Source: Cutaneotrichosporon cavernicola (Eukaryota; Basidiomycota; Tremellomycetes; Trichosporonales; Trichosporonaceae). Taken from it: DNA of 64,000 nucleotides. The DNA is taken from the NCBI RefSeq assembly GCF_030864355.1, contig NC_083398.1, forward strand, positions 930,001-994,000, read 5' to 3'. This document shows, piece after piece, positions 56,128 to 58,646 of this stretch. Position numbers and translations under genes: made by a program. Numbering within the stretch: the first letter of the stretch is position 1; each line of letters begins with the position of its first letter. The notes under the pieces are model-generated. The model saw only the letters and a list, made by a program, of their open reading frames with translations. It was not told where the DNA came from and searched no databases.

Positions 56128-58646
56128 CTAGGCAAAGCCGCCCGTGGACCCGAACCCGCCGGCTCCACGCAGCGTCGCCTCGAGGTCATCAACCTGCCGC
56201 ACAGGCGCCATGTGCACGCGTTCGAGAATAAACTGAGCCACACGGTCGCCCTTGGAGACGTTGAAGTCATCCCCGCTGTAATTGAAGAGAAGGACCTTGA
56301 CCTCGCCGCGGTAATCGGCGTCCACGACACCTGCACCGACGTCGATGCCGTGCTTGGATGCCAGACCCGAGCGCGGCGCGATGCGCCCGTACGTGCCGGC
56401 CGGCACAGCGACGGCGATGCCGGTGCTGATGAGGGCCTTGCCGCGGGCAGGGACAGTGATGCCGTCCGCAGCGTACAAGTCATGACCAGCCGAGAACGGA
56501 GAGCCGCGAGTGGGGAGAGTTGCTCCCTCGTTCAGGAGCTTGATGAGGAGCTCGTCAGTGGCGTTCGGCGCGCCGTTAGGGGGAGAGCTCGACGCTGCAC
56601 CGGAGTCAGGCTTGGCAGCCAAGCCGGCCGCGCCCAGCGCCGCACCACCAGCAACGGCGGATGCAACGCCAAGTGCCGCCTTCGGCGCGGCCTCGTCCTC
56701 GCTGCTGTCCGGCTGCTCGATCTCGAGGTCGCGGCTCTTGACCTCGGGCTCGTTCTTGGGCTCTTCCTTCAGCGGCGGGGTCACGGCCTTGGGAGGCGTC
56801 ACAGCCTTGGGCGCCGGCTTGGGTTCCTCCTTAGGCTCGGACTTGACCTCCTCTCGCAACTTTGACTGCTGCTTCTCGGGCTTGGGCGAAGAGGGTCTAG
56901 GCGTGCTCGGCGCGGTTGGCTTGGGCGTCGCGAGTGGCAGCTTGTTGGCGCTAGTAGCGCGCGTCTCGAGGTCGACAACATTGGGGCGGGCATCCTTGCC
57001 AGCGAACCACTCGTCAGCCTTGAGCGCCGGCTCTGCACTGTTGGCGGGCGGGAAGATGTCACTCTGGAACCCCTCGGCCTTACGAGGCACGATGAACGAG
57101 AGAGGCGTGACATCGCGGCCCGAGAGCTTGAACGCGCGCGCAATCTCGTTCTGCGAGACGTCGAGCGCACGGCGGGGCAGGAACCCGATGCCGCGCTGAG
57201 GGTCGCTAGTCTTGTACTCGTTGAGGAAGTGGAAGTGGTCTCCCTCAAACTCAAAGTAGCGGATGTTGCCGTCGCCCTTGCCGGCCAGGAAGAGGACGTC
57301 GTTACCCTCGGCAAAGTAGGGGATGATTATACCAGAGGACGAGTCGAGGCTCTCGGTCTGCAGCTGAGTGAGGCCTGCCGTCTCCCAGAGCATGAGCTGG
57401 CGGTCACTCATGCGGCTAAAGCCGGTCGTCGCGAGGCGGTCGCGGTCGCCGAGCCAAACAACCCGCGAGCCCTTTATGCCACCGTGTCCCTCGGCGACGC
57501 GGACTGCATCGGCGCCAGCACGCGGGTCGAAAACACGCAGCTTGCGGTCGCGGCAAGTGGTCGCGAGCGTCGTGCCGACAGAGTTCCACGCGATGCTCTG
57601 CACGCTGTCCTTGTGTCCTGTCAGTGAGATCGTCGGCTTGTCTGGCGACCCCTCAATGTCCCACACGCGCACGATGTGGTCGCCGGACGCGCTTGTAAGC
57701 ACGTTGGCAGCCGTCGGGTTGAACTCGACCTGTCCGACTTTGCGCCCGCCCGCATTCAGCTTGCCGACCGGGGCAAAGTCCTCAGGTTCCCACTTGTCCT
57801 CGCCCCAGCCCGCAAAGATCGAGTCGTCGACTTTCCAGATGAAGACTGGGGTCAGCGTGAGCTCGAGTAGTGAAGCGAGTCGTCGCCCAAGGGAGCGGCA
57901 CGAATCTCCGACTGGGGTATCGTGCAGGCCAACGAGGCACTATAAGCGTGCCAGCCTGGCGTCCATGTCACAGGCGAATGGAAGCTTCTCGCCGGCGGCA
58001 TCGGAAGGACCTAAGCTCCACCCAGAACAACTCACTCTTCCCGTCCTCGCCTCCCGACACAACCAGGTTATCGTCGAACGGTGACCACGCGGTATCCAGG
58101 CTGCGGTCAGCTCGTTTGCGTCGCCTCAACGGCAGACTCACACAGGCCCCGAGTGTCCACGCGCCAGCGGGAGGATGTCCGGGAGCTTGGTGGGGAAGCC
58201 CGACGGCTCGGGGAGCGCGTATGGCGAGAAGGCGGGGAAGATGGCGAACGCGCCACCACCGGAGACCTGCCAGTTGACAGCGATGTATTTCTGTGGTTAG
58301 TAAGCCAGCAAGCCGGACAGAATCGGCGGAGCGTCTACGGGAGGACTGCAGCCCAGGCAGAGCGGACAGCGGAAGGAGGCCGACCAAGCCGTTGTCGAAG
58401 GAGGCTGTTCTGGGCTTCTGGGCTCTCGCCCCGCTTGGCACCGGATCCGTCGACGCAACTCACCCCTCCAACAGTAACCATGTTGGTGTCCCACGCGCTG
58501 CCGCTAATCTTGACATTCTCGTAGTGGACCTTTGACGGCTGCCCGTACACGTGACGGTAGCTGCTCTGTCGTGTGAGTCGGTGAAACTGCCAAAGGCGGT
58601 GGTGCATCCCAGTTTAAGAACTTACGGAGCGCACGAACCGAGACAT
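56128..58646 (-). CDS. CRN1: Coronin-dUTPase fusion protein
   Basis: Five exons on the minus strand (58646-58626, 58565-58464, 58290-58142, 58100-58036, 57845-56128) give 684 aa. Residues 1-400 are a coronin: [120 protein letters not shown]. An Ala/Lys/Pro/Glu linker (401-539) follows. Residues 540-684 are a complete dUTPase: motif [63 protein letters not shown]. The coiled coil that normally ends coronin is absent. Coronin binds F-actin and Arp2/3; dUTPase hydrolyses dUTP to dUMP. Both parts lie in one uninterrupted exon, so the fusion does not depend on a predicted splice. Intron 4 (190 nt) is unusually long. Confidence 0.9.

What the first reader, a model, noticed from the sequence alone, without database searches (positions are those of the whole stretch)
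56128..58646. Coronin fused to a complete dUTPase
One minus-strand gene encodes a full coronin beta-propeller (residues 1-400) followed, in a single uninterrupted 1718-base exon, by a dUTPase with all five catalytic motifs. Coronin is an actin/Arp2/3 regulator and dUTPase a nucleotide-pool enzyme; I know of no described protein joining them. Motif I reads [11 protein letters not shown], with His where most enzymes have Tyr, but Asp is kept. If real, dUTP hydrolysis is physically tied to the actin cytoskeleton in this organism, with consequences for nuclear access of the enzyme.
Basis: partly seen in the sequence, partly recalled or inferred. Interest (0 to 1): 0.92.

Follow-up and report, generated by a model that had tools for sequence, protein, structure and literature searches.

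The report
Coronin–dUTPase fusion, published in 2011
This fungal gene really does join an actin regulator (coronin) to a complete DNA-nucleotide-cleaning enzyme (dUTPase), but the combination was described in 2011 for the same class of fungi, where the enzyme was proposed to replace the part that holds coronin molecules together in threes.

Summary
On the minus strand, 58646-56128, five exons give a 684-residue, 72.7 kDa protein: a full short-coronin domain, a ~140-residue linker predicted disordered, and a dUTPase with all five motifs, linker and dUTPase lying in one 1718-base exon. It is not a local artefact: among 335 database proteins fetched, 30 match both domains (24 named, all from genera I place in Tremellales or Trichosporonales), and 27 of 30 keep all five motifs.

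The claim that no such protein is described is wrong. Eckert et al. 2011 (PMC3203266) reported EST-supported coronins of Tremellomycetes with a C-terminal dUTPase instead of the coiled coil, a second ordinary dUTPase, and predicted trimerisation through the dUTPase. I find the same here: no coiled-coil motif, and a separate intron-containing dUTPase on another contig.

Modest additions: a clear member in Trichosporonales; one Cystofilobasidiales species (Phaffia) keeps the coiled coil, so the fusion is not class-wide; motif V and the catalytic motifs are kept, which speaks against a purely structural role; this genome's tandem coronin carries a D-glycerate 3-kinase, reported in 2011 as specific to Cryptococcus.

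The parts
58626..58646 (-). exon 1, start ATG at 58646 (MSRFVRS...)
   Evidence: GT donor; N-terminus aligns with MSRF[VI]R of the 19 relatives put into (19 of 30)
58464..58565 (-). exon 2
   Evidence: GT-AG introns on both sides
58142..58290 (-). exon 3
58036..58100 (-). exon 4
56128..57845 (-). exon 5, 1718 bases, rest of the coronin domain, linker, dUTPase, TAG stop
   Evidence: open without a stop (603-codon open frame 57939-56128)
56983..57111 (-). coronin-type WD40_4 repeat, residues 358-400, end of the coronin domain
   Evidence: Pfam PF16300
56563..56982 (-). linker, residues 401-540, rich in Pro/Lys/Glu/Ala, no coiled-coil motif, no Met
   Evidence: pLDDT under 50 and no helix there
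56692..56727 (-). conserved acidic linker motif [12 protein letters not shown], residues 486-497
56140..56523 (-). dUTPase domain, residues 554-681
   Evidence: Pfam PF00692 E 1.8e-40; whole-genome search hit E 7.8e-41
56479..56490 (-). motif I, AGHD, residues 565-568
56365..56376 (-). motif II, PRSG, residues 603-606
56305..56331 (-). motif [12 protein letters not shown], residues 618-626
56233..56250 (-). motif IV, GDRVAQ, residues 645-650
56143..56169 (-). motif V (C-terminal arm), RGAGGFGST, residues 672-680

Best explanation
This is the short coronin of a Trichosporonales yeast close to Cutaneotrichosporon, of the coronin-dUTPase type published in 2011 for Tremellomycetes. The N-terminal propeller binds F-actin and regulates Arp2/3 as other short coronins do (inferred from family). 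The C-terminal dUTPase domain, reached by a long flexible linker, forms the usual dUTPase homotrimer and so brings three coronin propellers together in place of the lost coiled coil (inferred; first proposed by Eckert et al.). The domain is also a working dUTP pyrophosphatase (inferred from motif conservation). The cell's general dUTPase need is met at least partly by a separate gene (its presence is shown, its activity inferred). Estimated: published fusion type 0.97; dUTPase acts as the trimeriser 0.65; catalytically active 0.8; catalysis used for something specific to actin 0.15.
For: Architecture. Among 335 proteins fetched match both domains, 24 of them named. Published description with EST support, coiled-coil replacement and trimer prediction. 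Coiled coil: 89 of 93 coronin-only hits carry the trimerisation motif or a basidiomycete coiled-coil signature in their last 90 residues, against 0 of 31 fused linkers, this one included; the structure model has no helix in the linker. Catalysis kept: 27 of 30 fused relatives have all five motifs; P0095, P0100 and P0122 lack stretches that hold motif IV or motifs I-IV. In the alignment of this protein with 19 of the 30 relatives, the motif residues are invariant apart from the variable places 567, 620, 648 and 674 and Gly645 (Ser in P0079). Closest solved structures: dUTPases, best E 6e-52, and for the propeller coronin-6, 1A, 1B and 1C. A separate dUTPase gene with introns and all motifs is on C2.
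Against: No transcript, protein or assay evidence exists here for this species. The coiled-coil signature was written after looking at the tails; the published motif alone (Arg, Lys or Gln at position 1) is found in the last 70 residues of 72 of 93. The actin-binding Arg30 of human coronin-1B (numbering recalled) corresponds by eye to Lys26 here, a substitution that Eckert et al. call frequent. Two coronins close to this group, from Vanrija (P0121) and an unnamed source (P0159), show no dUTPase; both look like truncated or frame-shifted models, but I could not read their DNA. The structure model covers the last exon only, has mean pLDDT 51.8, and gives the motif V arm only 26-33. The tree does not show a single origin of the fused domain.
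Confidence: 0.75

Rival explanations
1. The dUTPase domain is only a structural trimerisation module; its catalysis is a leftover without use.
For: A second dUTPase gene exists, and the domain sits where the coiled coil is missing.
Against: Motif V, a flexible arm that family knowledge says is needed for catalysis rather than trimer assembly, is present in 30 of 30 fused relatives. Motifs I, II and III are each in 29 of 30 and IV in 27 of 30 (pattern allowing Gly or Ser at its start); the misses lie in models lacking whole stretches.
Confidence: 0.2
2. The linker is cleaved, or an alternative first exon is used, so that the cell contains free coronin and free dUTPase; the fusion is mainly a shared transcript.
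For: One database entry, P0217 (Cryptococcus bacillisporus, 157 residues), is a stand-alone dUTPase ending in the same tail (KAVKDVAGSLI) as fused proteins of close relatives. The linker is long, predicted disordered and less conserved than either domain.
Against: No Met codon between residues 264 and 658 here, and none in the linker of 24 of 30 relatives. Eckert et al. [quoted passage not shown] P0217 may simply be a split gene model.
Confidence: 0.12
3. Assembly or annotation artefact: two neighbouring genes joined by error.
For: None found beyond the oddness of the pair.
Against: Proteins from eight named genera hold coronin plus a dUTPase with its motifs in the same order, and a ninth (Saitozyma) holds coronin plus the end of the dUTPase; no stop in the exon; linker motif conserved; EST support in Cryptococcus.
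Confidence: 0.01

Closest known systems
Tremellomycete short coronin with C-terminal dUTPase (Eckert, Hammesfahr and Kollmar 2011, PMC3203266; abstract, passages and two sections seen)
   Same: Same domain order, no coiled coil, complete dUTPase motifs, additional ordinary dUTPase in the genome, same class of fungi
   Different: Their named example is Filobasidiella/Cryptococcus (Tremellales); this one is from Trichosporonales by its nearest relative, and motif I has His for Tyr
Short coronins (yeast CRN1, mammalian coronin-1A/1B/1C)
   Same: DUF1899 start, WD40 propeller, WD40_4 extension; best solved relatives coronin-6 and coronin-1A
   Different: Those end in a coiled coil; this one ends in a dUTPase
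Trimeric eukaryotic dUTPase (solved chains 4oop, 2pc5, 3f4f, 3p48, 2hqu)
   Same: All five motifs; E 6e-52 to the best
   Different: Those are stand-alone enzymes; this one has ~540 residues of coronin and linker in front
Cryptococcus tandem coronin with inserted D-glycerate 3-kinase (Eckert et al. 2011)
   Same: A second coronin in the same fungi that carries a metabolic enzyme; also present in this genome on C5
   Different: Class-3 tandem coronin, enzyme in the middle rather than at the end

Membership tests
Tremellomycete coronin-dUTPase fusion (Eckert 2011) | Full short-coronin domain followed in frame by a dUTPase domain | tested here: met
Tremellomycete coronin-dUTPase fusion (Eckert 2011) | dUTPase replaces the C-terminal coiled coil | tested here: met
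   no trimer motif or coiled-coil signature in the linker, 0 of 31; no linker helix in the model; no dedicated coiled-coil program was available
Tremellomycete coronin-dUTPase fusion (Eckert 2011) | All characteristic dUTPase motifs kept | tested here: met
   five of five
Tremellomycete coronin-dUTPase fusion (Eckert 2011) | A further, ordinary dUTPase in the same genome | tested here: met
   C2:1526879-1527390, introns, all motifs
Tremellomycete coronin-dUTPase fusion (Eckert 2011) | Organism belongs to Tremellomycetes | tested here: met
Tremellomycete coronin-dUTPase fusion (Eckert 2011) | Transcript spans both domains | not testable with these tools
   no RNA data; reported for several Filobasidiella species
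Short coronin | F-actin binding | not testable with these tools
   position of human coronin-1B Arg30 is Lys here (by eye), a frequent substitution
Short coronin | C-terminal trimerising coiled coil | tested here: not met
Trimeric dUTPase | Family profile above the curated cut-off | tested here: met
   PF00692 138.2 bits against 22; TIGR00576 167.3 against 102.55
Trimeric dUTPase | Forms a homotrimer and hydrolyses dUTP | not testable with these tools
   only single-chain models could be made

The most novel reading that the evidence does not exclude
Because in trimeric dUTPases the active sites are built only when three chains assemble, and the same trimer here would cluster three coronin propellers, the fused enzyme could make coronin's oligomeric state, and so actin-patch or septin-ring behaviour, respond to dUTP or dUMP, or place dUTP clearance at sites of cytoskeletal activity. 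Both coronins of this genome carry a metabolic enzyme (dUTPase; D-glycerate 3-kinase), as published for Cryptococcus, which would make enzyme-coupled coronins a general feature of the lineage.
Probability: 0.12. Interest if true: 0.65.

Novelty: already known. Interest (0 to 1): 0.3.

Why it matters
The fusion looks like a natural swap of one trimerisation module (coiled coil) for another (a trimeric enzyme), kept across two orders of fungi that include Cryptococcus. It would let one test whether coronin needs only a trimer or also the enzyme. In the searches named in the full report I saw no experimental follow-up of the 2011 description. The closest leads are two C. neoformans papers of which I saw passages only. 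A 2024 septin interactome table lists CNAG_05301 'Coronin' in its Cdc3 section (PMC11651612); I could not check that this is the fused coronin rather than the tandem one. A 2023 proteomics paper reports 'coronin' falling under a peptide drug, matched to a Fusarium entry (PMC9952340).

Tried and rejected
Separate internal start for the dUTPase: rejected for this gene, no Met from 264 to 658.

His in motif I as a sign of lost activity: rejected; the position varies (His, Tyr, Phe, Leu) and the Asp is kept.

Origin of the fused domain by a tree of 54 dUTPase domains: did not resolve. Identities of the window domain to the stand-alone dUTPases in that set are 63.3% (this genome's C2 copy) to 70.3%, but the set was picked from the best 120 hits and holds no bacterial row, so a non-fungal source was not tested. 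The fused label needs three changes. The window's group of five sits with a stand-alone marine-transcriptome row (mmetsp, support 97/92, both on long branches). The C2 copy has a branch of 1.25 and an unsure place; P0217 falls among the fused rows; the bootstrap had not settled. The window's path to the backbone (0.10 + 0.31 + 0.38) is shorter than the C2 copy's, but I give that no weight. Left out of the tree: P0122 (too little domain), merc216, the bird entry, and P0095 and P0100 (gap); P0217 went in under a new label. Lack of introns inside the fused domain against two in the ordinary copy suggests a processed copy, not shown.

Apparent exceptions without dUTPase: Vanrija P0121 ends in a stretch like the linker just before the dUTPase; Saitozyma P0122 keeps only the last part (motif V); P0159's tail matches a wrong reading frame of this window's dUTPase DNA (75 residues, 34.7%, E 5.6e-7). 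I read these as model errors, unproven. Phaffia P0125 is a true exception with a coiled-coil tail.

Filobasidiales and Holtermanniales: I recognised no coronin named from them in the listings, so the origin cannot be placed more finely. Only the best 120 of 344, of 2323 and of 7946 hits were listed.

Full report
What is there. Reading the minus strand from 58646 to 56128 and splicing four GT-AG introns gives one protein of 684 residues and 72.7 kDa. Pfam finds DUF1899 at 3-61, WD40 repeats, the coronin-specific WD40_4 at 358-400 and a dUTPase at 554-681, E 1.8e-40. The last exon, 57845-56128, is 1718 bases and has no stop before the end.

Not chance or an artefact. Three protein searches (the best 120 listed of 344, 2323 and 7946 hits) fetched 335 proteins. 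A local comparison with the two parts of this protein found both a coronin and a dUTPase match in 30 of them. Twenty-four carry names: Cutaneotrichosporon, Cryptococcus, Kwoniella, Papiliotrema, Kockovaella, Naematelia, Dioszegia, Tremella and Saitozyma. The Saitozyma entry has only a 41-residue end of the dUTPase. Six are unnamed. That these genera are Tremellales or Trichosporonales is recalled, except Cutaneotrichosporon, which I looked up. Against C. spelunceum the identity is 95.5% in the coronin part, 80.6% in the linker and 88.9% in the dUTPase. Against C. neoformans (P0068) it is 74.8, 38.2 and 68.1%. Both domains are thus better kept than the linker.

Already described. [quoted passage not shown] They add that those species have a further ordinary dUTPase, that all dUTPase motifs are present, and that the dUTPase could mediate trimerisation. 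Of this paper I saw the abstract and outline, passages and the sections on oligomerization and F-actin binding. Seven searches of the held open-access library showed me no experimental follow-up. The terms were coronin with dUTPase and fusion; with Cryptococcus neoformans and dUTP; with deoxyuridine triphosphat-; with Cryptococcus, actin and dUTPase domain; with Tremellomycetes; then CNAG_05301; then dUTPase gene fusions. Searches listed 15 of 39 and 15 of 45 papers. Most subscription papers are not held. I saw passages of two C. neoformans papers: PMC11651612 (CNAG_05301 'Coronin' in the Cdc3 interactome table) and PMC9952340 (coronin abundance under a peptide). Neither speaks of a dUTPase in the text searched.

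Tests of that description here. (1) Coiled coil: 89 of 93 coronin-only hits have the trimerisation motif or a basidiomycete signature in the last 90 residues. Of the 4 without, two are P0121 and P0159, close to this group, and two have odd ends (P0177, P0197). None of 31 fused linkers (30 relatives plus this one) has either. The signature was written after seeing the tails; with the published motif alone, Lys/Gln allowed at position 1, it is 72 of 93 in the last 70 residues. (2) Motifs: 27 of 30 fused relatives have all five. P0095 and P0100 lack motif IV, and P0122 lacks I-IV. (3) Separate dUTPase: the genome search gave 4 matches at two places, this gene and a gene on C2 whose domain is cut by two predicted introns and has all motifs. 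(4) No Met lies between residues 264 and 658; 24 of 30 relatives also have none in the linker. (5) AlphaFold2 on the last exon's 571 residues (with 20 relatives; mean pLDDT 51.8) shows an unstructured linker and a beta-rich dUTPase part with block means of 63-88, except the motif V arm at 26-33. Because of its low confidence I made no fold search with it. Sequence matches to solved dUTPases (E 6e-52) and coronins (E 2e-92) carry more weight.

How it most likely works. The propeller does what short coronins do on actin and Arp2/3 (family knowledge). The dUTPase trimer replaces the coiled coil and holds three coronins on long flexible tethers (inference, first made in 2011). Retention of motif V and of the catalytic motifs across the fused set suggests that the enzyme is used as an enzyme. 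The rival of a purely structural domain predicts that these would decay, and they have not. What the enzyme does at the cytoskeleton is unknown; tying dUTP clearance to actin or septin sites, or gating coronin by nucleotide, is a speculation that the evidence does not exclude.

What is added here. First, a clear member in Trichosporonales. Second, Phaffia rhodozyma, order Cystofilobasidiales of the same class, has a coronin of 573 residues with a coiled-coil tail and no dUTPase, so the fusion is not a property of all Tremellomycetes: it arose after that order split off, or was lost in it. This rests on one species. Third, an acidic linker motif, L[ED]I-Q-acidic, is present in 24 of 30 fused relatives by one pattern and in 2 of 93 coronin-only hits, Vanrija and Phaffia; its presence in Phaffia suggests that it is older than the fusion. 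Fourth, the tandem coronin of this genome on C5 (two WD40_4 hits) contains between its halves a D-glycerate 3-kinase (E 1.6e-46 to solved chain 6ckg; Pfam and NCBIfam had no match to that exon) and ends in an acidic DDDW tail. The second enzyme-bearing coronin, reported in 2011 as specific to Filobasidiella, thus extends to Trichosporonales.

Verdict. The biology remains untested as far as I could search, and is an attractive experiment.

Noticed in passing
G000:C5:371197-373936 (+), loci L008 and L009: Tandem (class-3) coronin with a D-glycerate 3-kinase between its two coronin halves and an acidic DDDW end; the kinase insertion was reported in 2011 as specific to Filobasidiella/Cryptococcus, here it is in a Trichosporonales yeast.
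   Followed up: partly
window 56692-56727 (-): Conserved acidic linker motif [12 protein letters not shown], a form of it also in the Phaffia coronin that has no dUTPase; looks like a short interaction or phosphorylation motif, function unknown.
   Followed up: partly
database protein P0217 (Cryptococcus bacillisporus, 157 aa): Stand-alone dUTPase entry nearly identical to the fused domain of close relatives, with the same C-terminal tail: a split gene model, an alternative transcript, or a recent copy.
   Followed up: partly
database protein P0218 (bird, Spelaeornis formosus, 'DUT nucleotidohydrolase'): Differs from the Papiliotrema fused dUTPase domain by one residue over the aligned stretch (counted by eye), so probably fungal contamination of a bird assembly.
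   Followed up: no
window about 58950-59830 (+): Divergent neighbouring gene whose start lies about 300 bases from the coronin start; translation resembles a dienelactone-hydrolase-type protein (recalled resemblance, no search made; open frame).
   Followed up: no
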